Assembly: GCF_016906535.1 (NCBI RefSeq)
Contig: NC_057374.1
Location: 1,178,001-1,242,000 of the forward strand
DNA from: Rhizoctonia solani
Taxonomy: Eukaryota; Basidiomycota; Agaricomycetes; Cantharellales; Ceratobasidiaceae
Length of the DNA: 64,000 nt
Direction: 5' to 3'
How positions within the stretch are numbered: the first letter of the stretch is position 1; each line of letters starts with the position of its first letter. The position numbers were made by a program, and so were the translations under genes. The notes beneath the pieces are model-generated. The model had not been told where the DNA came from and searched no databases. It was given only the letters and a program-made list of their open reading frames with translations. Below, one piece after another: positions 8,505 through 55,600 of the stretch.

Positions 8505-10917
8505 ATGACCACCCAATTCGATAGTATTTACCATGGAACTGGGTTGAACTTGGGAGTAAGCCCTCAGATATCCACTATTTACTTTTCAGCTAATACCGGC
8601 TTGTAGAGATCCGCTTTGCGCCTGCTGGTATCGCATGGAAAGCACTCGAGGGTGAAGGAAGTATCATGATCCAGGCCGGAGACATAAAATATTGCCAGTG
8701 GCTACGGTGAGCGAATAGCATGCTGGCATATTTCGAGGGACTAAATACCCCACAGAGTGTCACGCAATTTTCAACTCCGGCTGATTCTAAAGGAGAACAG
8801 GAGGAGAGAAACTTTTGATGGATTTTTACGAGAGGTCAGTCTTTGGATTTTTTCTTGCCGAATTTCTTGTTAATATTGGAATGCGTTCTAGGACCACGAC
8901 AAGGTTTCTCAGCTCGTTACTCAACACTACAAAACACAGCTTGAAACGAAAGAAATCAGTGTCAAGGGCTGGAACTGGGGGTCTACAGACGTTCAAGGTC
9001 TGCTCTCTTTCCCCTAGACCCCTTATTGCACTTGAGCTCATGCAATAGACAGGCTCCGATCTAGCGTTTATAATCTCCAACCGGACAGCGTTCGAGATTC
9101 CTCTTCGCTCGGTTGCAAACTCCAATATTGCAGGGCGAACTGAGGTCTCACTTGAATTCAACATGTCTAATCCTACCTCACAGCCAAAAAGCAAAAAAGG
9201 CCGACCAGACGAGCTGTCTGAGATTCGTTTCTATGTTCCGGGCACCCACGAAGGCGATGGTGATGATGAAGATGTCTCGGCCGCACAGGCTTTCCACGAT
9301 TTGATCAAGGACAAGGCCGATATCGGTCAAGTCACTGGAGACGTATTGGTTAGTTTCAGCGAGGTCAATATCAGACTCCTCGGTATGTCTTATTCCTTCT
9401 GGCCATCTATTTCTCCGACATGAGGTTAACTTGGCACGTCGAATAACTAGTGGTCGCTACGATATCGACATGTTTCCAACTTTCCTTCGACTACGTGGAA
9501 AAACATACGATTACAAGATTTTGTATTCATCGATTACAAGGCTGTTTTTGCTCTCCCCGGACGATTTGCATGTTGAGATGGTGGTAAGTTTCTTTGTTTT
9601 ATGTGTCGATTTCCAGTTATTTTGCTTGCACTGTCTGATCCAATTTTATTTTTGTGTGCCCACAGGTTGGACTTGATCCTCCAATTCGACAAGGTCAAAC
9701 CCGTTATCCTTACTTGCGTATGCTATTCGGAGGGACGAGGACCTAGAGACCGAGATTCAAATGGACGAGTGCGTGCTCCTTTCTCATCTTTATCCTCTAT
9801 TCCCTCCAAAAATTCTAGTATCCGAGTCCCTATCGTTATTCGAAGAGGCACATTTAACTAAAAATTGAATTAAATGTGCAGGGAGCAACTCAAAGCTAAA
9901 TATGAAGGAAAACTCGAAAAGAAGTACGATGGTCCAGCACACGAGGTCATCTCGAGAATTTTCAGAGGGCTGAGTGGCAAGAAGATTATTGCACCACCAC
10001 GTTCCGCAGGTATATCTTGCCCTTTTGCTGGATTCAATTATGCCACCGAAAACTGATTTGTCGCTCGCAGTCATGAAGATATGTACGGTGTAAAGTGCAA
10101 CTTGAAAGCCGTCCAAGGCACGCTTTCCCGCTCGAAAAGTCATTGTTCTTCGTGGCCAAGCAACCTCATCTTGTCGAGTTTACGGACATACATCAGGTCG
10201 TGTTTTCTCGGTATGTCTTTTCTGCTCGTCTCTTTCCATTCTGCTTATTCTCTGCTCTCAAACTCTGCCCATTCGAATACTGACCTAATCACGCCTGTGC
10301 AGAATGGGCTCTGGTACATCATCGGCGCGTACATTCGATCTTAAAGTCATTTCCAAAACTGGACCAGAAGTCACGTTTACATCTATAAACAAGGAAGAGC
10401 ATGACCCAATCGAAAACTACCTTACTTCCAAAAAGTGCGCAAAAATCGGTACAGTCTGATTTTGGTTAAAGCTAATCTATGCTGCTTTAACAGGTCCGAA
10501 CCAAAAATGAGATGGCTGACCTGATTTGCTGGGAGCTGTTGTGGAAGACAGCGATGATGAGATGCAGAGTGTTGCCAGTGACGGAAGCGAGCGTCCTAAA
10601 CCAAGGGCGATGGATAGCGACGATGAGAGTGAGGCAGGTACGTAACCTTCTCCCTCTCCCCCTATTTCTTGTTTTCGTGGCTAACAGAGCGAACAGACGA
10701 AGACTTTGAAGCCTCTGAATCCGACGGCGGATCGCCATCCGAAAGTGATTCCGAAGTATCTGACCGAATGTCGATTGTCAGCGGAGACCTCGCTGTTGCC
10801 GATGCCCCTAAGAAGAAGAAAAAGGATGGGGAGGCACCAAAAAAGGGAAAGAAGGACAAGGCTGCCAAAAAAGAGGACGGGCCCGCGAAGAAGAAACAGA
10901 AGAAGAATACCGACTAG
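8505..10917 (+). CDS. POB3: FACT complex subunit Pob3 (SSRP1 family), apparent frameshift
   Basis: ATG at 8505 (MTTQFDSIYHGTGLNLG), stop TAG at 10915-10917. FACT moves and rebuilds nucleosomes during transcription and replication. Seen in order: N-terminal PH-like dimerisation domain (WKALEGEGSIMIQAGDIKY, ETFDGFLREDHDKV), the SSRP1 middle domain (DMFPTFLRLRGKTYDYKILY, RLFLLSPDDLH, GLDPPIRQGQTRYPYL), the second PH fold (FPLEKSLFFVAKQPHLVEF) and an acidic then Lys-rich tail without an HMG box, as in fungal Pob3. Between RYPYL... and RRDEDLETEIQMDE the frame breaks by one base near 9726-9733; one extra C restores it. I read this as a sequence error, not gene death, since both sides are well conserved. 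Confidence 0.92.
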
Positions 10918-11260
10918 ATGGGGCTGTCACGTTATCTTGTATTCCTTTTGCGAGCTTCATATATATTATACATTTAATCCGCGTAGGTTGTTGGCCGCAA
11001 AGGTTTCTCGACGCATATACGCGTGAGGAGTGATAAATGATCTGACTCGTGATTATTCTGGAACAGGAGAGGTATTTTCTGTTATTCTCTTGGTGACTCA
11101 CTTACTCCCTTGATTGTAAATTAGTCGAGTCAATTTATACGGGCTCATCGGTCTCACCCCCACACGTCGAAGCCAAAAATAGGGCCAACGCGAGCATTCA
11201 TGAGATATAAAAGAATACCACTTGCTTCGTCGCAGAACCTGGTCTACAAACCAACCCACC
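10918..11260. other. Intergenic between POB3 and acyltransferase
   Basis: Contains the POB3 3' end and the promoter of the next gene. A possible TATA-like element (GATATAAAAG) lies at about 11203-11212, about 50 bases before the ATG. No gene is seen. Confidence 0.4.
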
Positions 11261-12957
11261 ATGTCTTACATCCTAAGCCTTCCGTTCATGGACCTCAACT
11301 CTGCAGCCGAATCCGTCACGCTCAGTGCGGGGCTGGTGTTTAGTGGTGCGGTCGACCAACATCACGTTGAAGAGGCGTGCGCCAAAATTGCAAAGGAATG
11401 GCCCATCTTGGGATCAAAAATTCAGAGAAATTACCAAGTGAGTACGAATGAACTCCCGCTTTAAGAGAGGGGCAAAAACGTGACGATTGCTCCATAAAGA
11501 CTGGTAAAATCGAAGCCGTGATTCCTCATCCCGAGGAGGCACGATTGAAAGTTACCTTCCAAGTGCGTTGAATTTACTTGCTTGATCTTCGTGCATATAT
11601 ACTCATTCTGGGAATGAGCCTAGGCGACTGATTCCGAACTGGCCGAACTGGAAAGCCTATACACAAAAACCAAGTCGATATCCACCCAAGTTATGCGACG
11701 AAATCAAACCCTTTACCGAGAACATCCACTAAAAACCGTTGAACACTATCTCGCAACCGGAGAACCCGCATTCAGTCTACATGTTGCCTACCTATCTGAT
11801 GCGACGATAATCACTTTGACTATCCTGCATATCCTCATGGACGCATCTGGGTTTACCGAGTTCGCTAAAGCTTTTATCCGTGCTCTAAACGAGGAGCCCA
11901 TTCCACCCATCTTGGCTCATGACCCTTGGTCAATTCTGCTTCCTCGCGCTCTGGAGTTACCTGACAATCCTGATTCAAGCTTTGGCTGGGTGATCTGGGG
12001 CCCTGAGCAAGGTATTGCACTTCGTAATGCAGAAAGTAAAGCCTTTGAGGTAGATGGGCCATTCGAACAACGGATCGTCTACTTCCCGGCCTCTGAAATC
12101 GATCGATTAAAAAGTGAAGCACTCGCAGGACTTGAACTGGCTGGAACTCCGGTTTCGTTCTTGAGTACCAGCGATGTGATTTCTGCTTGGCTGTACAAGG
12201 TAAGTTTACAATACACTCAATATTAATATTTAGCGCTCAATCCATAAATAGCATACATTCATCGATGAGAACGAACCCGAAGAACAAACTCGCTTCATCT
12301 ACGTAGTCGACGCCAGGTACGACATCAGGCTTTTCACATGTCATTATATTCACTTTGGGTATCAGAAATCGGTTCCCAGAAGCATTTACCCCGGGTCATG
12401 CATATCTACAGAATGCCTTTTTCAACATGTCCACTGAACATTTGACGAGTGTGCAAGTGCGCTCCAAGTCTCTTGGCGAACTAGCCTACTTGATTCGTAA
12501 TTCTGTTCAAAAACAAACCACACCTGGTCAATTACTCGGTCAACTCAAATGGAAGCATGATCATGCTGGGCAGACACAGGTTGGGTTCAGTCCCGGAGAA
12601 GGCATGCAATGTAAGTCCCTGTGCTCTATAATATCTCGCATCATCCTAATCATAAAGCATGAGCAGTCGCATCGAGCTGTAGGTACACACATGGTGGTTT
12701 GCTTCAATTTAACTGATTAAAAATCATATAGGGCTGTCGTTTGGTCTGGGAAATTTGAACATCGAGAAACATATTAAGCCGGGAACTGGCTCTGGCAAGT
12801 TTTAGATGTGATTTATGACGTTATAGGTACCGTCCGCAATACTTCTGCTATCAAATTCAAAGATACAGATGGCGGGGTCATCTGTGAAGTGGCCTGGGGA
12901 GCGCGGAAGTGGACATCTGGGGCGATGGCAGAGTATGCGCTAGAGAACCAGACTTAA
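11261..12957 (+). CDS. BAHD/HxxxD-type acyltransferase
   Basis: ATG at 11261 (MSYILSLPFMDLNSAAES), stop TAA at 12955-12957; roughly 470 residues in six or seven exons. The key motif is HILMDASG near the middle, the HxxxD catalytic signature of CoA-dependent acyltransferases of the transferase family (PF02458 type). The C-terminal DFGWG motif of plant members is only weakly matched (LSFGLGNL), as is common in fungal relatives. Such enzymes acylate alcohols or amines in secondary metabolism, for example trichothecene 3-O-acetyltransferase. No other biosynthetic gene lies beside it, so the substrate is unknown and a self-standing detoxification role is also possible. Confidence 0.75.
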
Positions 12958-13348
12958 TATGTGCGAGTTCAACTTATTTTATAGTTTACACCTACACTTA
13001 ATGTTTATGCTGAGTGTCAATTATGTCACTAAAATTCCACTCAGTCTCAAACTAAGGAATTTATTGGAATGTTGTTCACAGTTGCATTGCAAACAAGACA
13101 TGCGATGCGAGTGCTTTGTTCTACTATATATATGTCACTGATGCACTGAAACGCATATCGCCGAAGTGTTGACATCCTATTTAACAAAACAAAGTTCAAT
13201 TCTATTCAATAGAGCAGTGAAGTGAGCTATAGATACAAATAATGAATGGGGGGGGGGTATGATCTAGGAAAAGTCGCCTAGAAAACCCCGATATTTCTGT
13301 TTACACAAATCCAGGTCCATCGCAGGAGACACTCCAACTGGCATCAAT
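12958..13348. other. AT-rich intergenic, convergent 3' ends
   Basis: Lies between convergent stops of the acyltransferase and the F-box gene. It has a run of nine G near 13249-13257. No coding frame or RNA gene is seen. Confidence 0.5.
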
Positions 13349-15099: not shown

Positions 15100-15307
15100 C
15101 GTTCGTGTAGCTAGTTTCGACTTACCAACCCCATACCTGCGACTTTATAAACCTGGACGTAGGTTCATGTATCACAAAGACCTATCAGAAGCCTGTGCGA
15201 ATACAGACATAGGGCTACGAGTTAAGGATGACGGCGTGAAGTCTTTTAGGAAGGCTTGAAGTGGCCTCTGTAGTCGAATAAGTATTCCTCGGGGTTAAAG
15301 TTAAAAG

Positions 15308-16822: not shown

Positions 16823-19301
16823 CTACTCGACATCCACATTAACTATCTTGATATCCTCAAACGGTTTGTCAACCTTGTTAACCTTGACATTCTCAATCGC
16901 ATGCACAACCTCCAGACCATGCACGACTCGACCAAAGACCGTATGCTTGTTATCGAGCCAAGGCGTGACACGGTGGTGATGAAGAATTGAGAACCGTTGG
17001 TATTGGGCCCAGCATTAGCCATGCTAAGTGTATATGGTCTATAGAGACGCGGGTAGAGAGGCAAGAGGGGCCGGGAGATGCGGAGAACGTACCGATCATG
17101 TTTGACAGCGGGCGAAAATCGTCTTCGAATTCTCTACCCCAGATGGACGTACCACCCGTTCCATCTCCAAGTGGATCACCCGTTTGAATCATCTATTCCT
17201 CCCCCATCGTCGATCAATACAAATACGGATGATCAGGAAGGAAAACAAGACTTACAAACTTCTTGATAACTCGGTGGAAAATGACACCTTCAAAGTACCC
17301 GCTCTTTGCGTGTCCGACGAAATTCTCGACGGCCTTGGGTGCATGTTCTGGGAAGAGACGACAGTGTATGTCACCCATGGTTGTGTGGATTACGGCTGTG
17401 GTGCCCAGGGATTGAGCAGCCTTGACCGGCTGGGCAGATGCAATAGTTTGTTCTTCTCGCGTAGGCTTTTCGTTGAACACGTCGCGGTCTCCTGATACCT
17501 TGTTGTCCCTGTTTACGCCCAACAATCAATCAGATGAACGGACGACAAAAGAGGAAACTTACTCTGGCTCGTCGCGTGTAAACATATAGAACCGAGGTCG
17601 TTTATATGCGGTGCAAAACAACGTTGGGTCTCGCACTTCTTATTCGCAAGAATAGGATTTGCAGAAGCTGCCATTGCCATTGTAGTTATTCCCTTTTTAG
17701 CCGGAGCGCCTTGGTAAAGCGCCAGATTCAACCATCGACCCGTTTCGTCCTTGCCCAACAATCGTACAACGCGGTTCGTAACCGTATTAACCACTACACC
17801 CAATCAACTTCAGATCGCATATTTGGACTTTAGCCAGTAAACTCACCCTTGATCCCAACTAGGGTGGGATACAAAACCATCGTCCCGCTCTCGTCCCATA
17901 CTGCGGAAATAGTAGACAAGACCTTTGGATCTTTTTCGATCTCTCGCTCGACGGCCAGTCGTCGTCCGAATTCCATGTCATCAAGTTTATGCGACGCTGT
18001 ACCGGCTTGCTGCATTTCCTGAATAGCCGTGAGCGATTCGTCATACCGTCGGGTCATTTTCCCTGTAAGGGTGTTGAAGATCCGGACTTGGCGGTCTGTA
18101 CTGCTCGAGAGCGTGACGAAATGTGAAGAGTTGGGCGAGAATGTGAGAGAAGTTGGGATTGATTTTGTCTGTGTTCCCGACTCAAGTTAGCTCCGAAATG
18201 AACTAACCCAGTGAATAACACACACCTTTTTGAATTCGTACAAATCGGTACTGCTCTTGAATTCCCACATACCCGGAACGTCTTTCGGAGGCTCATAAGG
18301 CTCCCTGGGCTGCCAGTACTCGACAAAGCCTGACTCGTCGGCTGAAACGACTGTGTCAAAATGGTCGGTGTACTGACTTGAGATGTGAATATCACTTTTG
18401 TGCGTCAACAGGAAGAGTTCGGGGTCAGCTTACGGTCATGAGATGAACAGGGGCGCGATGGAGGGACGAGATGGTTTGGAGGGGAGTTCCGTCGCCTCTG
18501 CCGTCGTAGATTCGAATTGTAGATGATTTTTCGTCCGAACTGGGTATGGGGTGTCAGTACCAAGTGAACGAGTACATACGGTAGACCTACATGGCCAGTA
18601 GCGCCTGAGCTTGCCCTCGCCTATGAACCCAGCAAGCGGTTTTGGGGGTATAATCCAACTTGATCATGTTTATCATGTCTATTGACTATCAGACACTGTC
18701 AAAACGACCAAGACCTATACGCACCAAAGTTGATAACATCAAATACTTTGACGCTCCCATCTCCGCAACGCTTGCGACACAGTTCCATCGGTAGACGCGG
18801 TAGAAGCAACGATCGGTGCCAAATGCGCGCGAAAGTGCTTAACAAACTCGATGCCTTGTTCTTGCTTTTTCCAGAATTTGAGGTGGCCGTCGATAGAGGT
18901 AGTGATCAAAAAGCCAGTTCTATATGTACTGTGAGTGGTGTGGGCCAGCATAGAGTGTCGAAAAGACGTACTTGGTGATTATGACATAATTAAGGACGTC
19001 GCGGTGCATAAAGCTCTTGGAATAGCGGTCTGCGCTGGGCAGGTGGTCCAAGAACAGACGTTCATGCGGGAGAACTATACACGCGCATAAGCACTAGATA
19101 TTCGACAGAAAACAAACACCCACCTTTTCGCTTTTTCTTCGCAGCTCCAGAGGTAGGTGCACCCTCTGGAACAGGCATAGGCCCAATGTCATCGTCGTCA
19201 TCGTCATCTTCGACGTCAGGCGTAGCTTCGGCAACATCATCGGCAGGAGCTTCGTCACTGACGCGTGGGCGCTTGCGAGTTTCTTGCGCGTCGTCGGCCA
19301 T
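16823..19301 (-). CDS. CYP15: Cyclophilin with N-terminal WD40 repeats (PPWD1/Cyp15), frame breaks
   Basis: ATG at 19301-19299 ([17 protein letters not shown]), stop TAG at 16825-16823. After an acidic N-terminus come WD40 repeats ([68 protein letters not shown]) and then a complete cyclophilin domain ([84 protein letters not shown]). This is the PPWD1 architecture, a spliceosome-linked peptidyl-prolyl isomerase. Two one-base gaps disturb the cyclophilin part: an A run at 17115-17118 (needs five to give [13 protein letters not shown]) and 16964-16971 (before TPWLDNKH). Both look like sequence errors. Shares an upstream region with POR1. Confidence 0.92.
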
Positions 19302-22926: not shown

Positions 22927-25195
22927 ATGATGCACAACTCGTCTCCGTCCCACCAAGCCCGCCATTATCCCCCGATACACCATCCTGACCCTATGCTCTC
23001 AAACTTTTCCCAGCAGCAGCCTGGCTCCAGCAACAGCAAACACACTCCCATCCGTCCGCCCATGCCATCCCGTCTGCCGACCTCTCCCAGGATATCTTCG
23101 ATGGCCAGTCACAGCAGCCCGTTCGCAAGCGAGGCGGCCGTGGTCCAGGCAAGAAGGACGTCGACCGGCCCAGCATCTCTGTCGGTACGTTCACTCCCAC
23201 CACTCCCCGACTCGACACTAATACCCACTCGCTCATCGGTTTGTTATTTTGATTGTTATTGTTATGCCTATTGCCATTGTTGGCCTCTTACTAGCTGGGA
23301 GGAAGGCGATCTCACCGACCGCCTCATCCAGGCCCTCGAGCGGACCGACAAGCAATGGCACGCAGTCATCGCCCAGGTCGGTCCAGAACACACCCGTGTC
23401 GTCATCGGCGTCCCCAAGCGCGATCTCCAGCGCGAAATTGCCCGCCATCTCTTTGCCGCCGACTCGCGCTACGACCTCGAAGATAAACGTACGCTCGAGC
23501 CCCTCGCCGTCAGCGTAAAGAATAAATTGTTCAAGTGAGTGAGTTGGCGTTCCCTCATTTCCGACAACGCTCGGTCATGTGATGCCCCCCCCTCCCCTCC
23601 ATCTCGTACTTTCATATCTAATCTCGATCGTCAGAATTGTCAACCTCTATCAAGATTGCGAGCGCGAACTCGTCGAATGGCTCCCCATGATCAACGACGA
23701 GCACGACGTTACCAGCTCGTCAGACCCCCATCTCGCCGCCGCCTGGGGTACGTCCTCCTCTCTAAGAATTTACCTTCTTCTGATGCGATCCGGCTCCTGG
23801 TTCTCCCTATCCATTCCGGGCGCCCGTCCGTGTCACGATCCTTGATGCGATGGGATGACGCCTGACATCCCGTCCTTTGTCTTGGGTTGTTTCAACCCGC
23901 CCCCTCCACCCTCCCCCCTCCCTTCTCTCGCTCCTCTACTTTCCGTTGTCCTGTTTGCGCGTTGTGTACGCGTCCCGCTCACACATCTCAATCAGGCAGG
24001 GTCAAGGAAAAGCTTCCTCAGTTCTTTCGCGTTCGAGACCTGATTAAGCGCACCCAGAACTCTTCGTCCGTGCCCACCAATTCCATCTCCACTTCTGGCC
24101 AGACGTCACCGATCCGCGCAACTGCGCAAAACCCGCAGGTTCGCGCGACGACCCAAGCCCCCCAGGTCATACCTACCCCCCAGACCCCCAGACATCAGAC
24201 ATCCGGCTCGCTCGGCGAGTCTTCTACGGGCGCCACGCGACAGTCTGCGATGCAAGGCGCAACCGGTCATGCCGCTGCCAATCTAGCCCTTTCTGGGCCT
24301 CATAGCCCCGCAACCAGAAACTTTGTTCAGCAACCACAACAGCATGGGGGAAATATTGGATTTTCATATGGCATGCCGCCCAATGTCCCTCAATCAACCC
24401 CGCACTTGACCCATCCGTCGACTCAGCAGCAGCAATTGCAGCAGCAGCAACAGCAACAACAACAACAGCAGCAACAACAGCAGCAACAACAACAACAACA
24501 GCAGCAGCAGCAGCAGCACCAACAGCAACAATTTCAACAACAACAGTCGCAACACCATCAAACTCAGCGGCTTCAGCACCCACAGCACCCGGCGCCTCAT
24601 CCCATTTCGATTCATAGACCATATGCGTCTGGAAGCGGAGTCTCGGGCCCAGCGTCCGCATCGGCTCCCTCTCCCTCATTCCCAGCGCCTCACAGCATAT
24701 TGACTCGCTCCCCGGCGCTTCCGCCCCCGCCTGTACCACCGCCAACCATGGCAGGACCATCGACTCAGCGTCCGCCGAGCGGACATACCCGAGCACCTTC
24801 AGTCACACGCACAACCGGACCGTCTCATCCATCGCCCAGACACAGCGCTTCGCCTTCGCCCCCGCCCGTGAGCCCACCACTTTCGGCTTCTGTGATTGTC
24901 AAGTTTGTAGAGGCACACGAATCGCGGAAGCGGAAGCGGGAGGAAGACTGGTTAACGTTGAAGCGCATGCGGTACGAAGAGCGAGAAAAGGAACGAGCCG
25001 AGAGAGAAAAACAACGGCAACATGAGCGGTGCGCTTATTTTCTGAAAATTTGACCTCATGTTACTGACTAAACTGGGTAGTGATATGATGCGATTGCGCA
25101 TCGAGCTGGCTCGTGCTTCGCGGGGCGAACCTCCCGAAATGCTGGACGGGGAGAACGAATTAGAGCATTTGGGGCTTCGAGAGGCCCCTGGGTGA
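22927..25195 (+). CDS. PolyQ protein with a putative SANT/helix DNA-binding module
   Basis: Candidate ATG at 22927 (MMHNSSPSHQARHYPP); stop TGA at 25193-25195. A basic RKRGGRGPGKK patch, similar to an AT-hook, sits in a different frame from the N-terminus, so one base is probably missing around 23020-23085. After an intron comes a compact helical domain (WEEGDLTDRLIQALERTDKQW ... KRDLQREIARHLFAAD ... VSVKNKLFKIVNLYQDCE) and then KLPQFFRVRDLIKRTQN. This pattern resembles basidiomycete proteins with trihelix/SANT-like domains, a family guess only. A long disordered region with about 40 glutamines follows, then a Lys/Arg/Glu coiled coil (KRKREEDWLTLKRMRYEERE). A transcription-regulator role is inferred from composition. 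Confidence 0.65.
24424..24557 (+). repeat. CAG/CAA polyglutamine tract
   Basis: Mixed CAG and CAA codons coding for glutamine with few interruptions (Leu, His, Phe). The mixture of codons, not a pure CAG run, suggests selection for the protein tract and lowers slippage. Confidence 0.9.
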
Positions 25196-26842: not shown

Positions 26843-29349
26843 ATGCTCAAGTCGAATACAGGATCAAGGGTGGCTTCAAGGGCGGCATTCAAGTCTCAAA
26901 GATGCATACATGCTTCGTCCCCTATGCGTGCGTCTGGAGAAAGGGTGCTTAATCGTTACAGTCGGACCGTGACAGCACCAAAGGACCAAGGAGCGAGCCA
27001 AGTAAGTCGCATTCATGTGAATTCATTGGTTGTTTATTTTATATTATAAAGGCTATGTTATTGGCGACGGAAGGTGTGGGTGCAACCACAGATCTTGGGA
27101 AGCCCATGGTCGGCGTTGCTAGCGTATGGTGCGTTGTATTTTGACGATTCTTTCTTTGATTGTATCCAAGTAAATTTCCTGTGTAGGTATGAGGGAAACC
27201 CGTGAGTTCAATAAGTACGCATAATGCGCTCAAAACACACAAAACCAATACCATATGCACAGATGTAACCGACATCTTCTCGGTCTGGGGCAAAAAATTA
27301 CCAAATCACTTCGTCAGGCAAATATTACTGGATACCAATTCGGAACTGTTGGTGTCTCTGATGGAATTAGTATGGGAACAGATGGCATGAGATACTCGTT
27401 ACAAAGTCGAGACCTAATTGCAGACCAGGTATGGTTCCCCCACATATCTTTGCAGTGTTACCCCCCAAACATCTCACTTTACAATTACCCCCTCCCCTCC
27501 GAGACAGGTTGAGACAGCCGCTGGAGGCCATTGGTTAGATGGGATGGTTGTTGTACCGGGGTGCGATAAGAACATGCCTGGTGTATTGATGGCACGTAAG
27601 TGGAGAAGCCACGCTACAAGCTTAGGCTGTACTCTGAAACAGGAGCTCCTTGAACTTACGTTTTTGTACATTGGCTAGTCGGCCGACTAAACCGTCCTGG
27701 ACTGATGGTCTACGGCGGTACGATCAGGCCTGGGTCTTGCGCCGGCCACCACAGCTCGATATCGTCAGCGCGTTCCAATCTTATGGCAAGTATCTTCAGG
27801 ATGGTGAAACTCCAGATGCGGAAAAGTTCCGGCAAGATACGATCAACCACGCCTGCCCAGGACCTGGCGCCTGTGGAGGAGTGAGTGTCCAAGTGGAGCA
27901 ACAAATGATTAGAGGCACGCCAGACTAAACTGGAATATTACAGATGTATACCGCAAACACCATGGCATCTGCCGCGGAGGCGATGGGAATGACACTTCCA
28001 GGATCTTCATCCTTCCCCGCGGAATACCCAGAGAAACAACAGGAATGTGAGACTATTGGTCAGGCCATGCTAAATTTGCTTGAGAAAAACATTCTTCCGA
28101 GAGACATTATGACAAGGAGTGCATTTGAGAACGCTATGGTTGGTTTGATACTCGATCTTTTCGTGAAGAGATGGATGCTGATAGGGACGTTTAGGTTTTG
28201 ACAATGATTTTGGGTGGCTCGACAAACGCAGTTCTACACTTGATTGCGATTGCGCATTCTGTCGGAATCAACCTCACAATCGACGACTTCCAATCTGTCT
28301 CTGACCGCGTGCCATTCCTCGCGGATCTAAAGCCAAGTGGTAAATATGTGATGGAAGATGTTCACAAGATTGGAGGCATTCCGGGTCCGTGCATATACGC
28401 TTTGGTTGACTCATTTGATATTTACGCCTTCGTTTTCACAGCTGTCCTCGCCTATCTACTTGAGAATAAACTTATCGATGGGAACAACATGACAGTGACA
28501 GGAAAGACGCTCGGAGAGAACCTTGAGAGATGGACTGTGGAGAAGGGAAGGCTTCAATCGGGCCAAAAGGTCATACGCCCGCTGTCTGAACCCATCAAGG
28601 CAACTGGCCACATCCGGTGAGCTCCCAGTCGGCGCACTCTAAATTATTCGCCTTGCTGATCTCCACGCTGCTCCATGCCCAATCAACCCACATAATTACT
28701 TGCACATGCACCACTTTTCAATGTTTGCGATCAGCATATTACGCGGTAATCTTGCGCCTGGGGGCGCAGTCTCTAAAATAACGGGCAAAGAAGGCCTGTC
28801 CTTCAAAGGAAAGGCTCGTGTATTTGACAACGAGGCAGAGTTTGTACATGCTATTGAGACCAAGTCGATCAAGAAAGGCGAGAAGACTGTTGTCGTTTTG
28901 AGGTATCTTGGCCCGAAGGGCGGTCCCGGTATGCCTGAAATGCTCAAGCCCACGAGCCTGATCATGGGTGCCGGGCTCGGCCTGGACGTCGCGTGTTTGA
29001 CGGACGGTCGATTCAGTGGAGGGTGAGCGTTGATTATATCTCCATATATGCGTGGAGTCATATTGGCTACGGACATTGATTGATCGTTCCCAACAGATCT
29101 CATGGCTTTGTAGTAGGCCATGTGGTTCCTGAAGCGCAAGTTGGCGGACCAATAGCTCTCGTACGCGACGGAGACACAATCGTAATCGATGCGGTCGCAA
29201 ATACGATTGACATGGACGTCTCGGAGAGCGAACTTACCCGCCGGCGGAGCGAGTGGACTGCCCCGCCGCTAAAGGTGAAACAGGGCACCCTATTCAAGTA
29301 TACAAAGGTCGTGGAGGACGCGAGTCATGGTTGTGTAACCGACGCGTAA
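26843..29349 (+). CDS. ILV3: Dihydroxyacid dehydratase, mitochondrial
   Basis: ATG at 26843, stop TAA at 29347-29349. The enzyme makes the 2-keto acids of the valine, leucine and isoleucine pathway and needs an iron-sulfur cluster. The N-terminus ([20 protein letters not shown]) is basic, Ser-rich, without acidic residues: a mitochondrial target signal. Conserved stretches: [91 protein letters not shown] and GHVVPEA. The three cluster cysteines (NPCN, GCDKN, GACGGM) are present. About ten short introns. One base seems missing at 27743-27748 (GGCCACC; CCC expected), shifting RPGSCAG to [14 protein letters not shown]. The gene is convergent with RIO1. Confidence 0.95.
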
Positions 29350-29438: not shown

Positions 29439-31598
29439 CTATGCCTTGGTCGCCTTTATCCTTCGTTTCTTCTCAGCCTTGGGCATTTTCTGTTTACGCT
29501 TCTCGCGCGCCTCCTCCTTGGCCGCCTTTTTCCTCTCCTGTAAACGAGTCCCCCGCGTCAGTACGGTAGGTGAAATGCGGCGCGAACCAGTTCTACCTTT
29601 TTGGCATCTTTATCCTCATGCCTCTTTCCCCGAGGCTTCCTTTCCACGAACCCATTTTCTTCACCTGCACCATCCTCTTCACTGCTGTCGACTTCTTCTT
29701 CACTATCCTCTAGATCACCATCCTTATCCCTGTTTGTGTCCGTCACAACCAGGCCCTCCGCTGCCTCATTGATTCGGACGACCCCCGTTAAATCTCCGTA
29801 AATCAGGTCCTTCCCCTCACCACGGTGCAAGCGCTCTATGTCCCTCTCCGGATCATAAACGTCGTTTAGCGTTCGTGGGATATACGATTGTAGGAACACG
29901 GCATCTTCCTGTTTGTTGGACCCTTCCAGGGGAGCACGAGTATCGCCGCCTTCTGCGTCGGCTAATCCTTGAGGTTCTGGTCTAGTTAACCACTCTTGTA
30001 AGATAGCTTCCAGAGTCGAGAAGTCTTCAGGCCCTCCATTCGTCAAATTCTCGTGGGTTACAAACTCGAACAGCCGTCGGGATCCAAGAGTGCGCACACC
30101 ATCTCGTGTGAAAAATGCCTCGACGTTGCGGATGTCACTACGTAGAAAATCAAACGCGGAAGGGTGATCGTGCTCGACAGATTGAGAGACATCGATGATG
30201 TATAGGTGGAAATTGTGATAAAGTATGTTATACTCCGACAAATCGGCATGTACGAGTTTGCAGACGTGGTAAAGGAGGCGCATGACGGCCACGAGCTCGG
30301 CATATAGTGACGGAAGGTCTGAAGAAGGTATTTGCGCGTCTTTGAGCCGTGGCGAAGCCCTTGTGATTCTATCAGCTATTATAATTGAATTGTAATAGAG
30401 GAATAGTTTACCATCCGTCCTTGTTGCCTAAGAATCCCATGACTAGAACGTTTTCCCGAACTTCGATGGGCTCCGGACAGCGAATCCCAGCCGCCATCAG
30501 CCGCTTGAGATTTCGCATTTCTTTTTCTGCCCATAGGCGTACCATTTTACGCGGATTTCGTTTCGAATATCCATGGCGGAAACGATGTTCACCAGTGACA
30601 TAGCTAGAACGTGACCGTGAGCAGCGTTTACCAGCCACAGGGATCCCATCATACTCACCGATCACGGTCTTTGAACACCAAGATAGACGTTTTATAGATC
30701 TTCAGCGCAAGGTGGCCCGGTGGCTGGGAAGGGGTAAGAGCATGGTAAACATTGGCCTAGTGGCTGCCGTGAGCATCACGTCAGACTATGTCAAGTGAAG
30801 TGCATATGGCTCACCTCCTTCCCAGTGCTCACACATCCATTGACCTCCCACACCAAGCCCCTGCCAATCATCTTGAATAGTATAATGCGTGTTCGAGGAT
30901 CTAACACTTGTTCATTGGTCGCGCGGTCTGATTTGTCTTTGACGTTTGCTCGTTCACTTGCAGCTTTACGGTTGACGCTGATACCTGGTTTCATATCCTC
31001 ATATGGCCGGGAGATGTTGGCGATCCTAGAGTTGAATTTGGCAAACAATACTGCCTGGTCTGCTAGACGCTTGTCGTTGGTGGGTATGTTGGCTGCTGTC
31101 CTTTTTGGCACAGACCTATTCACAGCTGGGAGTGGAGCCACAGAGGTGTTTTGTCCCAGGGCAGAGCGTGAGCCGGGTGCCGTACCAGAACGGACTTGAA
31201 TATGTTGCCTTAGACGGTTATATTGTTTGGTAAAATCTAAAATGGTTAATTATACTGGGTAAACCTTGGACACTGGAGTTAAAAGGCGTACCCCCATCGG
31301 CGACTTCCCAGTCCGCTTGGTTGACTTCATCATATTCAAGCCCATCATCCGACAGGTCCTCCTCGTCTTTGTCCTCGCCCTCTGACCATTCCAGTGTACC
31401 TCCAGTAGGATCGTCGTCAATAAATGTTTGGCCGTCCCTAGGATCAAAATCTGGAGCACGATCCAGTACATCGAGTTCAGATTGGAGAGCTTCACGAGCT
31501 TCACGTCTGGTCGACATATTTGGTTGAGTAACATCCTCTTCTGCGTCATCGAATTGACCTGGGTGTACGATATGAATTTCATGAACTGGGATAGCCAT
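29439..31598 (-). CDS. RIO1: RIO1 atypical protein kinase (40S maturation)
   Basis: ATG at 31598-31596 ([16 protein letters not shown]), chosen over an in-frame ATG at 31679 because the region between is AT-rich and hydrophobic, unlike the family. Stop TAG at 29441-29439. Rio1 acts late in 18S rRNA maturation in the cytoplasm. Seen: acidic N-terminus, glycine-loop and STGKEANVYHA motif, [34 protein letters not shown], catalytic loop [13 protein letters not shown], metal motif [27 protein letters not shown], and a Lys-rich C-tail ([18 protein letters not shown]). All kinase residues typical for RIO1 are present and no frame break was found. Convergent with ILV3. Confidence 0.95.
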
Positions 31599-35674: not shown

Positions 35675-38781
<3,107 letters not shown>

Positions 38782-39095: not shown

Positions 39096-40656
39096 TTAAT
39101 CGAGTTGCATAGCATCGCTCTTGCGCTTGTAGCGAACAACCCAAGGATGAGTTGCGACCTGAGTGAGCGGCAGCCTTCGTTCGGGATCGTGTTGCAGGAG
39201 CTGTGATAATCACGTCAGTGACGAGGCAAATAGGACAAATGGTAGCGAGCAAGTAATAGTTTGACACATAGACGCTCGTGGCTCATCTAAAGAAAATGCA
39301 TGACTTTACCTTTCGAATCAAATCTGCCGCGTCACTGGAGATGTGGGATGGGATCTGGAAGCTGACGGCCGAGATCTTGGTGTACGTAGCTATATAAAAA
39401 ACGTGCAGTCAGTAAAAGTCTCTGGGTTCCTTCTCCCTTGACAACTCGATAGACTACCGCGTTGTCCACTGAGGTCCTCGAATGGTGGTTTGCCGACTAA
39501 GAACTCGAACATGAGCACGCCGAGCGCCCAGTAATCGACTTTTTCTGTATGGGGACGCCCTTCGACCATCTCGGGTGGGAGATAATCAAGTGTACCGCAC
39601 AAAGTTGTTCGTCTGCCCTTTTGGTTAGTGGGACAGTGCAAAGCAACAACCGAACATAGCTAACCGGTTGCCAGGCGCATGAACACTCCAACCAAAGTCA
39701 CCGATTTTCAGTTCTCCGTTAATACCAAGGAGAAGATTTCGGTTGATATCCCGGTGAATAACATGTTTGCTATGAAGATAGCTTAGGGCATCGGCCATTT
39801 GGTAGATGTACTGTTAAAATGTTAGAGTCGCGTACGGCTCGGGAATCAAAAAACAACATACTCGGCTACTCCGTTTCTCGGTGAATCGGCCTTGTTTGGA
39901 TAACTGCTTGTACAGCTCGCCTTTTCCGGCAAATTCGAGCATTAGGAAAATGCGCTTCGTGTCGTGGAAATATCCATAGAGCCGAAGTACGTTCGGGTGC
40001 CTAGAATCCAGGTAATTTGCCCCGAGTTTCAATCCATATATTCAGACCGACCCACCTCAAGTTTTGCTGGATTTCAATCTCACGTCGAATTTGCTTCTCG
40101 ACCTGGCACTGGACGATTTCCGACTTGTAAAGACACTTGAGGGCAACAATATACTGGGGAGGGCATTTTGTTCGGACCATGTAGACTCGACCGAATTTTC
40201 CTTTACCCAGGGGACGACCCATGTCGAAATCGGTAAGGTGCCATTCGCGGGTGGGGCGATGACTATAGAGCACATGTGAGCCGCATTGGAGTCAAAATAT
40301 TCACTTTTCGCTCACCCGCTATAGATGCTTGGTGCACTCGAATCCAGAGCAAGGTCAGATGCTGCCTCTCCAGTCACCGGTTGGCCACGACTCTCGTCTT
40401 CCTTCTCGAATCCACCATCGTAGTTTCCGATATCGATGCCGCCCATTCCAGCACTAGCGCCATCTCCGGAACCACTTCGGGTAGGAGAGACGGGCCTACT
40501 TGCACGGGAAGACGCGGTGGTGGGCATGTTGGATTCGGAACTTCCCGAAGTGCCAAACGGTGGTCGCGATACGGGTCGTGGGGCAGCAGCAGTAGACGCT
40601 CCGAACTTGGTTAGCAGCCGCGATACGTTTCCAGCAGGCGGCAGTGTTGTCGACAT
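39096..40656 (-). CDS. IPL1: Aurora kinase (Ipl1/Ark1), altered catalytic loop as read
   Basis: ATG at 40656-40654 ([15 protein letters not shown]), stop TAA at 39098-39096. Aurora drives chromosome bi-orientation and cytokinesis. After a Ser/Pro-rich N-terminus the kinase domain begins [21 protein letters not shown], then [10 protein letters not shown] (ATP lysine), [47 protein letters not shown], the activation segment [19 protein letters not shown], and [20 protein letters not shown]. The catalytic loop reads [11 protein letters not shown] where HRDIKPENLLLG is expected. Restoring one base to each of three runs (AAA, CCC, AAAA) gives the normal loop exactly, so the kinase is probably active and the sequence wrong here. 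Shares a short promoter with the septin-like gene. Confidence 0.94.
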
Positions 40657-40771: not shown

Positions 40772-42733
40772 ATGGTGCTAGGATTCTCGCTGCGCAAGAA
40801 AAAGAGCACACAGGATGTGCCGGCTCCCGCTCGCTCGCCGTCTCTTCCGGACATCAGAGCACAGCAAATGGCATGGCCCGAGTCACTGGTTGACCTTCCA
40901 TCCTATCGCCAGCCAGGTCCTGAGCATCCCCCTCCGAGAACTTCCACAAGCGGGCCTATTGCCTCTATCTATGCTCGGCCTCCCCCTTCTTCCTTCAATC
41001 GCCAGGCAGAACCTACCCCTCGCCGCTCATCTGCGAGCCAGCGCAGGCCTCGCATGCCTGTTCCTTTCAATCTTATGGTTGCTGGCCCCCGCGGTGTTGG
41101 TAAATCTTCGTTACTCCGACTCCTCATCGAGACGTCCGAGCTTTCCGTCCCTCTCGAAGTCCTCCCTATTCGACCTACTCGAGATATCTCGACTTTTACG
41201 GCCGAGGTTTCCAACTCTGATCGCCTTGTGCTCACAGTGATCGACACCCCTGGGCTGGACTATTCAGATGGTTCTGAGCTCGAATTGGAAAAAGCTGTCA
41301 CCGGGCTGGTCAAGTATGTTGACGCCCAATATGCGGAAACGCTTGGTGAGGTAAGTATTCTCGCTTTAGGCTTTCTTTTTAGGTTTGTGTTCATTGTAAT
41401 ATAACCATCCCGCTTTCCTTTCTAGGAATCGAAAGTCGTTCGCCAAAGTAAAGGCGACCACCATGTTCATCTGTGCATTTATCTCATCGATCCATCCTCA
41501 ATTCAATCTCCTGCGCAACGCAACCAACTGAGACCGTTGCGCGCTAGGTCGTCTACGCCTGAAAACTCGGCTGAGGACTGGGATTCAGAGTCCGACGACG
41601 AGATCAATGACCAAACTCACAGGTTAAGCATGCTTCCAGCCGAGATTCGGGCCATCCAACGTCTATCGCAACGGACAAACATATTCCCCGTGATCGCCCG
41701 GGGAGATACCCTCACCGATGCGCGCTTGAATCGCATCAAACGTGTCATCAAACGAGACCTTGCCAATGCTGGAGTCGATCTCAAATTATTTGGGATTGGG
41801 GACGATGACGATATGCCTCAACGTGGTCGAGTTGAGAGTCGTGTCGGACCTGGTGGCGAAGAGGAGCCCAAAGTTATCAAGACTAAGTACCGGCGTCCCA
41901 GCAAACCCCGTGCCAGCCTAGAATCTAGCAACGACGCTGCCCCCATCGACACTGCAAATGTTCACGTCATTCCCAAAGTCGACAACTCGGAGCTCTCGCA
42001 GATGTTCCCCCTGGTAGTCATCGCTCCAGATGTACTCAAAGTAAAGGGGTCCAAGTCCAAGCGCCAAGCCACTGAGGAGAGCGGGTCTCCCAGCATACCC
42101 GGTACGCCCATGGCCGTGACTACAGATGACCCAGATTTGCCAAGCGCCGAGCTTGCGGGATCGTTCTCGCCTCAGGAAGCTGCTCCTACCCAGCCGCCGC
42201 CGATCCAAACGCAAACCGACGCAGCTGGAAACTTGACCACCCCTCCTCAGCCTTCTTCGCGCTCCCCTTCAATGTATGCGTCTCCTGGCGTGTTGCCGCC
42301 CAGCTCTTGGCGTGGAGGTGCACCATCCGTCTCGGGCGCTCCAGCCACAAGGACATACCCTCGTGGTCAATTTACTCGCAAGTACCGTTGGGGGACCATT
42401 GATGTACTCGACCCATCCCATTGCGACCTCGGCGTTTTGAGGGGCGTTGTGCTAGGATCGCATATGAAGGTATGTGGTTCTTATTTGTCCACGGTTCAAA
42501 TTAGAATTAAGGCTGATATATTGGTCATACTTCGCCAGGTGCTAAAAACGCATACACGCGAAGTGATGTACGAGCGATTCAGAACGGAGAAACTTCTCGC
42601 GCGCCGGGCGACTGCAAATATCAGTGCTGAACAGCGTAGCCGACTTTTGAAAGGTACGTTTTGGGCTCTGATTGGGTGGTTGACTAGGATAGATGGCTTA
42701 TGACATTGTCGATTGCTAGGTCTTGACCCCTAA
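40772..42733 (+). CDS. Divergent septin-type GTPase with large insertion
   Basis: ATG at 40772 (MVLGFSLRKKKSTQDVP), stop TAA at 42731-42733; about 580 residues, three introns (last exon is only LDP after a split Gly). Septin features: P-loop GPRGVGKSSLL, switch II DTPGLDYSD, the G4 region FPVIARGDTLTDARL (canonical septins have AKAD), and the septin unique element RKYRWGTIDVLDPSHCDLGVLRGVVL ... THTREVMYERFRTEKL. Between G4 and the unique element there is a Pro/Ser-rich insertion of about 190 residues absent from core septins, and no C-terminal coiled coil is seen. Core septins form filaments at the bud neck or septum; this member may be regulatory. Grouping with core fungal septins or a separate class needs a tree. 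Confidence 0.85.
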
Positions 42734-45141: not shown

Positions 45142-45266
45142 ACTTCTCATAGCTTAACCCCAGCTGCGGGCGCAGACAATTGAGTCACTGTGCTCGGTAT
45201 GGCAATGAAGTAACATATATTCAACTTCAAATGCTTGTATAGTATGATACGTTTGTAATAATGCAT

Positions 45267-48629: not shown

Positions 48630-48899
48630 GAGGCGAAGTATTGGCGGGGTTAGGATAGCTCTGATTACTCCCGTATGCCTTTATAGTATTGTATTAATGC
48701 TCAAATAGAAGTCGGAAAACAGAAAGTTTGGGTTGTTGCGGGGCTCCGGTCCGGAGAAACGATGCGGCCCGGGGTAATTCTGGAGTATTTGCTTCTATCT
48801 TTGGATCCTCACAAGGCCAGGGTAAACTAATGTCATTTTTGGCACGCTGGTGATGTACCTGAAGTTCTAAGTATATACTACATGGTTGTTGTTTACATA
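48630..48899. other. Short intergenic, promoter of pectinesterase
   Basis: Between the lyase stop and the pectinesterase ATG on the same strand, 270 bases. Sequence CCGGGGTAATTC-like GC-rich patches near 48760-48780. Nothing firm. Confidence 0.35.
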
Positions 48900-51612: not shown

Positions 51613-52191
51613 GTCGGTTTGAGCTCAAAGATACGGTATCTCCGTGGGCCGTACGCCTTAAATACGTCCAGCCTATGAATCCGCGCTGGGTATTATGCCG
51701 AGGGTCATCTTGAGTGCCATGTAAACTCCGGATTAATAACCTTTTGGGGCGAAGAAGCAGCTTTGTATGCATTTAAGGATCAGAGAAGGGCGCGCGGGCC
51801 GTCAAAATAACATACTTCGGTCCGGGAAGGCACCAGCATTGGGAAGGGATCATCATGTGGTTGGGAGATTTGACTTTACGGCATCACGTGAGCCAGGGGC
51901 AAGACAAAAAAATGGATAATTAATTTGCTGCGGGTAACTGGATGCGCAAATCTTTGGGCCATCCTTGAGGAATGTTCTGTAGATATAGGAAACTAAGAGC
52001 GGGTCACAATATGCGAATTGGTACTCGGTTGTTTGATATTTGTAAAATTTTGATTGAAATATTTGCTACAAACAACGCTTTAAGATGTTGGTTAGGAAGA
52101 GGCGCAAGGGGCTACAACTGTCAACGCACAGAGTTCCTGAACTACTAGCAGGTCCTTTCTTCAGCTTGACCACTGTTCTCGCCGATTTCTT
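51613..52191. other. Intergenic, lyase A promoter and bL35m 3' end
   Basis: Upstream region of the lyase with the CACGTG box, then the 3' end of bL35m. No other gene seen. Confidence 0.4.
51885..51890. promoter_or_regulatory. CACGTG box upstream of lyase copy A
   Basis: Perfect palindrome 273 bases before the ATG in TCACGTGA context. Confidence 0.35.
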
Positions 52192-52536
52192 CTATGAACC
52201 TGGCAGAAGTCTTCGGAGATGCTTGGCTTGTGTCCTAGTCGATATGACCGTCCCACCCAGTGCGTTGATTTTTGAGGCAGGCATATGTGTATTAAGATGC
52301 CTTTTCCCACATTTTCCCTAGTTGATTTGTGCTCATACTCAATATCCAACGATGGTCGCATACATAGACGAAACACATACCCGTTTAAACATTCCATTCG
52401 CGATTGTCGACCACCTCTTCTTTGTGCCCGTATGAGTCTTGAGTTTATAGCCGGCAAGGTTTACTGGAGTACTAGAGAAAGACCTGACATTTCCAGCTAT
52501 CGAAAACAAAGACCGAGTTAGGCTGAACAAGGACAT
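52192..52536 (-). CDS. Mitochondrial large-subunit ribosomal protein bL35m
   Basis: ATG at 52536-52534, stop TAG at 52194-52192. Exon 1 encodes a mitochondrial presequence (MSLFSLTRSLFSIAGNVRSF) and the start of the L35 fold (KLKTHTGTKKRWSTIANGMFKR). The intron has GTATGT and ...CTAG; exon 2 continues GKCGKRHLNTHMPASKIN, ALGGT and ends TQAKHLRRLLPGS. KTHKGAKKRWK-type basic motif and the RRLLP end are family hallmarks. About 95 residues. It is easily missed, being small and split. It is divergent to UFD2 with 132 bases between. Confidence 0.85.
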
Positions 52537-52668
52537 TTCCTGGTGGGAGAGTGGAGGTCACCACAAGCGCCGAAGCACGTCTCAGGGCATGTATTACGCG
52601 AGAATCGCCCCTTCGACGCGTACTTGCACCACCGCAAGCCTGTCGTCACGTATCCCAACTAGAAGATT
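52537..52668. promoter_or_regulatory. Shared promoter, bL35m and UFD2
   Basis: 132 bases between divergent ATGs. No clear TATA box. Confidence 0.45.
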
Positions 52669-55600
52669 ATGTCTGCTCCGCTGAATACACCACAAGAAGA
52701 TGCTGAACGAGTGTGTGACATGGACGCGCGTATATCTCGCAAAATACTAAATTTATTTGTTTAGATTCGCTTGAAACGCCTTGCTCGACTTGGCGGTGGC
52801 GGACAAGCATCGCCAGCCGCTTCGGGTTCCACGAGTACACCGGCCACACCACCGGCCGCTCCCAAACCTGTCATTGCTCATACTCCTGTCACTGCTTTAC
52901 CTAAGCCTAAACCTATTGTCAAGCCCGCCGCTCCTGCCTCACCCGCCCCCGAACCTGCCAAGCCATCGCCAGTTAAACAATCGCAACCGGTCCCACTAAA
53001 TTTCCCTCAATGGGAATCTGAAACACTAGGGAAAGTATTCAATGTTACGTTGGATGTAGCCTGTGCCCATAGCCGCCCTATTCCCCAGCGCTAACAATTT
53101 GGGCAGAGAGAGCAGGCAGAAAAGTCAGGATGGACTATTACATGGCTTCGCGGTGTGCGAAACGAACTACTAGAGGAGGATCCAGGTACGATACTCGACA
53201 CCAGCCCCGCATTAATATAAACGTTTTTGACAGCCCGTCCTCAACCGATCCCTTTGGAGGCCGACCTCGCAGACAGGCTGATAATCGACCGACTCAGTCT
53301 CGACCCGCGTAGTCCGACTGATGATCCCGAACTTCTTACTGTCCTAGTGGGTTACCCCCACTGGAAACCTCGTTGGGATACCTTGTAGGATGCTGGAAGA
53401 GGATACACACTATACGAACCCAACTTTCACGGAGACCCCCACCTTTAGCTGATTTGCAGCGAGCAACGCAAATACTCGATAAGTTGCGCGAGCTCGTCGT
53501 ATCCTATGCTGGTTTCACGCTACAAGATCCCGGCATGTTCCCTCAACCCGAGGGTGTGGTCCTTGGGGCCCAGGAGCTTCTTCCCAGCCTTCTAAGCCTC
53601 AGTTCTGCGCCACTTAATGCCGGGTCGACAGAGCTTGGTCTCGGTGCTGGAGACGTGGAGGCTTTTATAGGAGATCTTGCCAAAAGATTTGCTGATGATG
53701 GGATGGATGAAATCTTTGGACCTATAATCACCATGGTCATCGGCGCACTACCTGCTGAAGGTTTGGGGAGCGGGGGATCAGAGTGGAGGGCCGTAGTAGG
53801 TGCCTTGGAAGCTCTTGTTTCCGATAAAAATGTAGCAATGGCGGTAAGTCGACTCGCCAAGGTGACATGAGCCTTGCTTATTCTGTCCAGTTCCCTCGGC
53901 TGCCAAATTGGTTACCTGAGCATGTAACTCCCCATGAGGTCGAGTTTGCCTCTTTGTTGGGACCCTTGGCCCGCATGGGTATATTTGGCCGGGAATGGGT
54001 TAGTAGACTTGTTCTGATTCGGGTAATATAAGCTGACGGTCATATTTGTACCGGCGTAATAGCCCGCTCTCGCCCAATCCTATTACCCAGAGCCAGATAA
54101 GCGAACATCTCAAAATGCAGAGGCCGTGGATACTACGTTGCGTGCGACCCTAGTTAACCTCCAGGTGAATTTTTGGGCTATTTATACTTACAGGGCAAGC
54201 ACTTACATTAAACCTCTCAGCAATCCCTTTTCCTCGTCTTCAATGCAATTGTCCGCGCATCGGCAGATTCTCGAGAAAGGGTGCTCAAATACTTTTCGAC
54301 GGTGCTAAATATCAATGTGAAAAGGGCTGGTGCTCACGTGAGTTTACCTATGAGTTTCTGGTAGCATGCGTTTGAGCAGTCCCTTCAGGTTGACCCGCGT
54401 ACGGTTGCATCGGATGCGTTTATGATCAACTTGCAAGCAGCTCTACTCAGATTTGCGGAACCATTCTTGGATGCCAAGTACAGCAAAGTAATAACACAAA
54501 CTCTAGTGCATAAATATATTCTAACTCCTCTGCCCCTAGATCGACCGTATTGATGCTAAATACTTCGCTATGACCACCCGTATCAATCTTGCCGAAGAAA
54601 CTAGGTTAAAGGCAACAGCAGAGGAAGTAAACGCATGGGAGCAACGCGTGGCCCAGAATGGAGGTGAGGGTGTCTCGCCTCAATCACACGCAGTGACTTA
54701 TTTGTACGGTCTAGTCACTCCACAAAACTTCATCTCGGATATATTTTTCCTGTGTGCCGGCTACAACCACCTTGGAATCATCCGTACTATTGCTACTCAT
54801 GGAGAAATCCTCAAGCACCTGGGCGAGATTGACAAGTGGCTTGAAACGGCCGAAGCAGCAGAAGTCCCTCCAGGGCCGCAACAGACCCTCCATCAAGCAC
54901 GGATCGAGCGTGTCAAGGTACGATATTCCAGGGGCCTTGAGAATCGGAGTTGACCTACAATCGCGTTCAGGCTGACAAAACAAAATTCCAACGAGAGCTA
55001 CTCACTTATGAAGTCCAACTGCAAGACCCAGAAATTACCCAACGTAATCTTGCATTCACTAACTTCATGATGGTTTGGATATTAAGAATGGTCGACCCTA
55101 CGCACCAATACCCGAGCAAACCCATGACGTGCGTATTTAGCATCTGCTCGTGGGTAGTAACTAACGCAGTGCATATAGTCTGCCCTTGCCGAACAAGTTC
55201 CCGATGAGTTCCGCATACTACCAGAGTATTTCGTCGAAGATGTAGTAGATTATTATATCTACATCATGAAGTGAGTTCTATCAGTAGGAGAAAGATTCGA
55301 GATATTCACCGCTCGATTACAGGTATCGCTCTGATTTACTCGATACCACACTGAGGACGGAATTCTTAGTATTTGCCCTGACGTTCTTATCATCTACATG
55401 GTATATTAAGAATCCGTTCCTGAAATCCAAGATACTCCAGGTTGGTACATGCCGCCAAATTTGGCGGGAAAGCTAACTCAGGCATTGGATCAGGGCTTAT
55501 TCTACGGATCCATACATATTGGGCGTGAGCGTGATGGTCTGCTTGGAGCACTCTTCAATAGCCACCCGTTGGCTCTGCAACATCTGTTCCCGTCATTAAT

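What the first reader, a model, noticed from the sequence alone, without database searches (positions are those of the whole stretch)
9726..53350. Window-wide pattern of one-base contractions in conserved genes
At least ten conserved genes (POB3, PPWD1/Cyp15, POR1, ILV3, Zn2Cys6 factor, SSL2, Aurora, pectinesterase, PL4 copy A, UFD2) lose their frame at isolated points, and every case I could resolve needs one added base, mostly lengthening a run of identical bases. Essential genes would not all decay this way. The simplest reading is homopolymer shortening in an unpolished assembly. Any automatic annotation of this window will over-split genes and call false introns or pseudogenes.
Basis: partly seen in the sequence, partly recalled or inferred. 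Interest (0 to 1): 0.75.

Follow-up and report, generated by a model that had tools for sequence, protein, structure and literature searches.

The report
Lost bases in a collapsed genome
Several essential genes in this fungal genome look broken by single missing letters; this is almost surely an assembly error, probably where the fungus's different nuclei carry different letters, and it puts false introns into the published gene models.

Summary
The frame breaks are in the sequence, but they are not biology, and they are not mainly homopolymer shortening. The window lies in the assembly of Rhizoctonia solani XN: size and N50 match the paper exactly. I aligned 15 genes to close relatives with an intron- and frameshift-aware aligner. 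Consensus: 19 breaks in 28.1 kb of coding sequence, 15 in 9 window genes and 4 in 6 genes on other contigs. All 19 lack one base; no consensus gain.

Breaks lie no nearer to long runs than random exon positions (13 sites). All 19 are compatible with the lost letter being a synonymous position: 54% expected for random loss (P 1e-5), 76% for loss from runs of two or more (P 0.005), 96% for runs of three or more. XN is heterozygous, collapsed and Pilon-polished, so the likeliest cause is loss of heterozygous sites, where two alleles split the polishing vote. That is inferred; no reads were seen. Seven XN gene models bridge breaks with altered introns.

The parts
8505..10915 (+). POB3 (FACT subunit), 5 one-base frame losses
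   Evidence: 542 identical of 551 aligned residues to P0135 (split codons counted as not identical); breaks found with 5 of 5 relatives; own model P0142 has 509 aa against 558
11261..12955 (+). BAHD-type transferase (PF02458 in its relative), 1 one-base frame loss
   Evidence: 449 of 450 residues identical to P0274, the only relative used
16825..19301 (-). PPWD1/Cyp15-type WD40-cyclophilin, 5 one-base frame losses, two of them about 20 nt apart
   Evidence: found with 7 of 7 relatives
26900..29347 (+). ILV3 dihydroxy-acid dehydratase, 1 one-base frame loss (span as aligned)
   Evidence: 5 of 5 relatives; own model P0155 has 576 aa against 602
29441..31598 (-). RIO1 kinase, intact
   Evidence: no break with 6 of 6 relatives
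35675..38779 (+). SSL2/XPB helicase, 2 one-base frame losses
   Evidence: 5 of 5 relatives; own model P0016 has 828 aa against 875
39098..40656 (-). Aurora kinase, intact apart from introns
   Evidence: no break with 5 of 6 relatives, one lone call with the sixth (P0263); best relative P0261 382 of 386 identical
40772..42731 (+). Septin, intact (end differs between relatives)
   Evidence: no consensus break; 3 of 5 relatives give none, lone calls with the other two
52669..56942 (+). UFD2 ubiquitin ligase, 1 one-base frame loss
   Evidence: 5 of 5 relatives; own model P0131 has 1049 aa against 1105

Best explanation
The breaks are consensus errors in the collapsed assembly of R. solani XN, a multinucleate, heterozygous strain. 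Most likely each marks a heterozygous single-base site. When long reads of two alleles are merged into one sequence, neither allele wins at such a site and the base is dropped. Short-read polishing then sees two competing one-base insertions, neither with a majority, and leaves the gap, while ordinary one-base losses at homozygous sites are repaired. Gene finders then cut the bad stretch out as a false or enlarged intron. Shown here: the losses, their direction, their compatibility with synonymous positions, no excess of long runs nearby, and altered introns in the models. Inferred: that the sites are heterozygous, and the two-step loss.
For: 19 of 19 breaks are losses of one base and 19 of 19 are compatible with a degenerate codon position; same routine on synthetic codons: 0.544 for random loss (P 9.5e-6), 0.759 for loss from runs of two or more (P 0.0053). 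Given the observed run classes, P(all degenerate) is 0.004 under random loss and 0.011 under run loss (the latter for 18 sites; the 19th cannot be a run loss), and loss at degenerate sites predicts the run classes 2.4, 7.5, 5.8, 2.2, 1.1 against 1, 8, 5, 4, 1 seen. XN has 2.56 heterozygous SNPs per kb, the highest of the strains compared (PMC7884421 section 9). Pilon makes an indel call only with a majority of valid reads, and its authors say its diploid indel handling could be improved (PMC4237348 passages). Breaks are patchy: 11 of 15 window breaks in 8.5-19.3 kb (P 4e-4, boundary chosen afterwards; all 15 genes P 0.006).
Against: No read or allele data were seen, so heterozygosity of the sites is not shown. 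The degenerate-position test does not separate this from loss in true runs of three or more (0.963; P 0.49), which remain possible for 10 of 19 sites. In the inverted C11/C13 duplicate, runs of three or more hold 15 of 37 one-base gaps against about 17% of bases, so runs do have some effect. The sample is 19 breaks. Heterozygous sites that change an amino acid should also drop out; none was seen.
Confidence: 0.58

Rival explanations
1. Ordinary one-base losses of PacBio consensus calling, with a mild preference for short runs, that survived incomplete polishing for reasons unrelated to heterozygosity, such as poor short-read coverage in patches.
For: Short indels causing frameshifts are described as the most common errors of PacBio CLR contigs before polishing (PMC8081667 passage). 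18 of 19 sites could be losses from a run of two or more. One-base gaps between the C11 and C13 copies are enriched in runs of three or more, 15 of 37 against about 17% of bases. Patchiness also fits patchy polishing.
Against: Blind loss should hit non-degenerate positions in about 46% of cases and run loss in about 24%; 0 of 19 seen. XN had 114- to 265-fold Illumina coverage as a group statement for the six strains and was Pilon-corrected.
Confidence: 0.36
2. One reading: shortening of homopolymer runs in an unpolished assembly.
For: 10 of 19 losses could come from a true run of three or more.
Against: The window's run-length spectrum fits an order-3 Markov expectation; break sites have no longer runs than random exon positions; 9 of 19 cannot come from a true run of three or more and 14 of 19 not from four or more; the assembly was polished.
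Confidence: 0.03
3. The frame losses are real: gene decay, or null alleles carried by one nucleus.
For: Only the sequence itself; reads were not seen.
Against: FACT and TFIIH subunits are essential in other fungi (established knowledge, recalled). The SSL2 stretch has one copy in the assembly. Decay would include gains, larger indels and stops; only one-base losses were seen by consensus.
Confidence: 0.02
4. Programmed ribosomal frameshifting or another recoding that skips the missing base.
For: All breaks have the same direction.
Against: Proteins of other R. solani isolates continue at the same places and their gene models read through; no common motif by eye in the 13 contexts printed (not tested statistically).
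Confidence: 0.01

Closest known systems
False indels in collapsed diploid assemblies (Trypanosoma brucei Lister 427, PMC8445201; passages read)
   Same: Merging two alleles introduced indel errors and apparent frameshifts; nearby allelic variants were a named cause; an annotation tool showed such genes as having introns
   Different: There the cause was traced with reads and phasing and includes length-variable repeats and misaligned variants; here the signal is single lost letters at possible synonymous sites, inferred without reads
Residual indels of long-read (CLR) assemblies (PMC8081667; passages read)
   Same: Short indels in the consensus that give frameshift errors in proteins
   Different: That account is of assemblies before polishing; XN was polished, and codon position points to a selected remainder
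Pilon's majority rule for indels (PMC4237348; passages read)
   Same: An insertion is made only if a majority of valid reads support it; evidence for two alternatives is expected at heterozygous sites
   Different: The split-vote loss at a heterozygous base is my inference and was not in the passages I read
Homopolymer shortening of long reads (general knowledge, recalled)
   Same: One-base losses that break frames
   Different: No excess of long runs at the sites

Membership tests
Collapsed-heterozygosity consensus artefact | Assembly merges haplotypes of a heterozygous organism | tested here: met
   Taken from print, not from reads: XN, 2.56 heterozygous SNPs per kb, 16 chromosomes as one set (PMC7884421 sections 6 and 9)
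Collapsed-heterozygosity consensus artefact | Errors sit where harmless allelic differences are expected | tested here: met
   19 of 19 compatible with degenerate positions; compatible, not proven, and loss in runs of three or more would give the same
Collapsed-heterozygosity consensus artefact | Reads show two alleles at the error sites | not testable with these tools
   No reads held
Homopolymer shortening in an unpolished assembly | Losses concentrate in long runs | tested here: not met
   13 sites; 19 sites
Homopolymer shortening in an unpolished assembly | Run-length spectrum of the assembly is cut short | tested here: not met
   against an order-3 Markov model of the same window; no true sequence to compare with
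Homopolymer shortening in an unpolished assembly | No short-read polishing | tested here: not met
   Pilon with Illumina reads
Gene decay (pseudogenes) | Mixed lesions: gains, losses, stops, loss of conservation | tested here: not met
   Only one-base losses by consensus; exons otherwise align closely to relatives
Programmed frameshifting | Shared slippery motif | tested here: inconclusive
   None by eye in 13 contexts; no statistical motif search

The most novel reading that the evidence does not exclude
The frame breaks of the XN reference are a footprint of its hidden second haplotype. Each marks a heterozygous, mostly synonymous site, so the map of breaks reads local heterozygosity out of the assembly alone, and codon position at frame breaks is a read-free test that separates collapsed-allele errors from ordinary sequencing errors in published genomes. 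The published 'more and larger introns' of XN would be partly an artefact of it.
Probability: 0.5. Interest if true: 0.42.

Novelty: not a real feature. Interest (0 to 1): 0.27.

Why it matters
This assembly appears to be the RefSeq reference of the species: PMC11551851 gives GCF_016906535.1 as 40.85 Mb in 17 contigs and calls it the model reference strain (passages); that it is XN plus a mitochondrion is my inference from the sizes. In my sample 9 of 15 genes carry at least one break. The seven own models compared lose 4.8% of residues and gain 13.5% of intron sequence against one relative each. Gene-loss claims, effector lists, orthology and intron statistics built on this proteome need care. 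The codon-position test needs no reads and could sort error types in other heterokaryotic genomes.

Tried and rejected
Truncated homopolymer spectrum: not seen. Introns alone: enough for Aurora, RIO1 and septin; for the broken genes the aligner, free to use GT/GC-AG introns of about 38 nt or more, kept the breaks at every penalty tried, except one POB3 break that went at the highest frameshift penalty. Shared motif: none by eye (no statistics). Codon position in the C11/C13 duplicate: only 3 of its 37 one-base gaps fall in stretches called coding, so it says nothing. Rfam and tRNA scans of the window: nothing. Literature for the split-vote mechanism: the listings showed no title that names it; PMC8445201 is the closest (passages). 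This is not a claim that it is unpublished.

Dropped before the counts: 19 frame calls seen with single relatives only (PPWD1 2, septin 4, Aurora 1, OFD1 2, AMG1 3, bestrophin 7), some of them gains, taken as misannotated relatives; two further losses that appear only at a lower frameshift penalty (POB3, UFD2). The bestrophin break has 5 of 6 relatives, AMG1 2 of 2, the transferase 1 of 1. Query pieces of the Zn2Cys6 gene and of an F-box gene at 13.7-14.5 kb brought no relative into the 120 rows listed and were not followed. Of 16 sampled stretches 11 long frames were printed and 6 genes carried through.
Full report
What was claimed.

Where the window comes from. The genome held for this window (G000) has 40,703,773 bases in 16 contigs, and the window is C5:1178001-1242000. 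The closest listed homologs, up to 99-100% identical over the query pieces, are from Rhizoctonia solani. Table 1 of PMC7884421 (section 6 read) gives strain XN 41,104,060 bases, of which 400,287 are in five unplaced scaffolds, leaving exactly 40,703,773; its N50 of 2,303,118 is exactly the length of C7. The window is therefore from R. solani XN, assembled from PacBio reads and corrected with Pilon and Illumina reads. It is not an unpolished assembly.

Gene models annotated on the same contigs. They align to the DNA with 0 frame breaks and all unsplit codons identical, but for one residue in SSL2. I take them as XN's own models.

Counting the breaks. I wrote a protein-to-DNA aligner with GT/GC-AG introns in all phases and explicit frameshift states, and ran it for 15 genes against 1 to 7 relatives each, own models apart. 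Six of the 15 lie on six other contigs (C1, C4, C6, C10, C13, C16), chosen from 16 sampled 10-kb stretches by long open frames that brought relatives. Consensus: POB3 5, PPWD1 5, ILV3 1, SSL2 2, UFD2 1, BAHD-type transferase 1, OFD1 2, AMG1 1, bestrophin 1; RIO1, septin, Aurora, cyclin B, a transmembrane protein and NDC80 0. One event called 'short by two' in PPWD1 is better read as two losses about 20 nt apart, each of which fits the relative exactly. Total 19 in 28,098 coding nt, all losses of one base: 0.86 per kb in the window, 0.38 per kb elsewhere (difference P 0.16). Other penalties leave the pattern in place (17 to 20 calls).

Not mainly homopolymers. The window's run-length spectrum fits an order-3 Markov expectation. 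At 13 break sites the longest run within about 5 nt averages 2.54 against 2.66 for random exon positions (P 0.73), with no run of 5 or more. Asking which run the lost letter could belong to as the sequence stands: none for 1 site, a neighbour of length 1 for 8, of 2 for 5, of 3 for 4, of 4 for 1. So at most 10 of 19 can be losses from a true run of three or more; 18 of 19 could be from two or more.

Synonymous positions. For each break I asked, with a wildcard and the relative's protein, which codon positions the lost letter could have occupied. In 19 of 19 at least one is degenerate. The same routine on synthetic random codons, drawn with the codon use of the 15 aligned genes, gives 54% for random loss (P 9.5e-6), 76% for loss from runs of two or more (P 0.0053) and 96% for runs of three or more (P 0.49). 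Given the observed run classes the probability that all are degenerate is 0.004 under random loss and 0.011 under run loss (18 sites; the 19th cannot be a run loss), with codon use of the seven genes; loss at degenerate sites predicts run classes close to those seen, not formally tested. Sequencing error does not know codon position; selection on standing variation does. That points to heterozygous sites, with the limit that runs of three or more would look the same.

Mechanism (partly inferred). PMC7884421 reports 2.56 heterozygous SNPs per kb in XN, the highest of its strains (section 9 read). Pilon makes an indel call only if a majority of valid reads support it (PMC4237348 passages). If the merged consensus lacks a base where the nuclei differ, the reads offer two different one-base insertions, neither with a majority, and the gap stays. 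This predicts losses only, little bias to long runs, synonymous positions, and patchiness; all four are seen. Heterozygosity at the sites themselves was not seen.

Consequence for annotation. In the seven own models introns number 76 against 72 and total 4,754 against 4,187 nt, and proteins total 4,629 against 4,863 aa, compared with one relative each. Of the 13 breaks in these genes, 11 lie inside or within 70 nt of an intron that only the XN model has (counted by hand; the second OFD1 break and the bestrophin break do not). Some of the 16 model-only introns are far from any break and may be ordinary annotation differences. [quoted passage not shown] My sample suggests that part of this is artefact; how much is unknown, since JN and LY were not examined and the excess in intron number here is 4 in 72. 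BUSCO completeness of XN is given as 89.5% against 94.1% for BRS1 (PMC9890813 passage), consistent with broken genes among other causes.

A check without relatives. A terminal arm is shared, inverted, by C13 and C11, from the first sampled point (C13:1001) to about C13:781,000, not at 902,000. In 34.6 kb of three compared stretches the copies differ by 73 substitutions and 37 one-base gaps. 22 of the 37 gaps lie in runs of one or two, 14 of them at lone letters. Runs of three or more hold 15 of 37 against about 17% of bases, so runs have some effect, which counts in part against my reading. Codon position could not be tested there.

Patchiness. 11 of 15 window breaks fall in POB3, the transferase and PPWD1 (8.5-19.3 kb; 2.2 per kb) and 4 in the other six genes (0.32 per kb), P 4e-4 with a boundary chosen afterwards; dispersion over all 15 genes P 0.006.

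Verdict. Breaks confirmed in five of the ten named genes, refuted in Aurora, untested in POR1, the Zn2Cys6 factor, pectinesterase and the PL4 copy. An assembly artefact (about 0.97 in all): loss of heterozygous sites 0.58, ordinary residual losses 0.36, homopolymer shortening in an unpolished assembly 0.03.

Noticed in passing
G000 C11 about 1,310,000-2,099,829 and C13 about 1-781,000 (L019-L022, L025-L030, L032, L033): Near-identical inverted terminal duplicate of about 0.78 Mb or more: 99.3-99.9% identity in three compared stretches (34.6 kb), matches at five further points, none at C13:902,000. Either a recent arm duplication or translocation, or haplotypes kept apart and scaffolded as two chromosomes; it could hold many of the 670 genes that PMC9890813 counts in duplicated blocks of XN (passage; my inference).
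   Followed up: partly
G000 C1:14,001-24,000 and C5:2,136,001-2,146,000 (L023, L024): Subtelomeric inverted duplicate, 8.6 kb, 99.66% identity, 26 substitutions and 3 one-base gaps, these in runs of 5, 5 and 9.
   Followed up: partly
window about 54,900-55,200: In UFD2, 4 of 5 relatives align with a one-codon insertion at an intron edge that the own model places 4 nt away; perhaps a further unresolved event, not counted.
   Followed up: no
window 24,424-24,545: CAG/CAA repeat coding a long glutamine tract in an open frame without Pfam match at 23,866-25,050.
   Followed up: no
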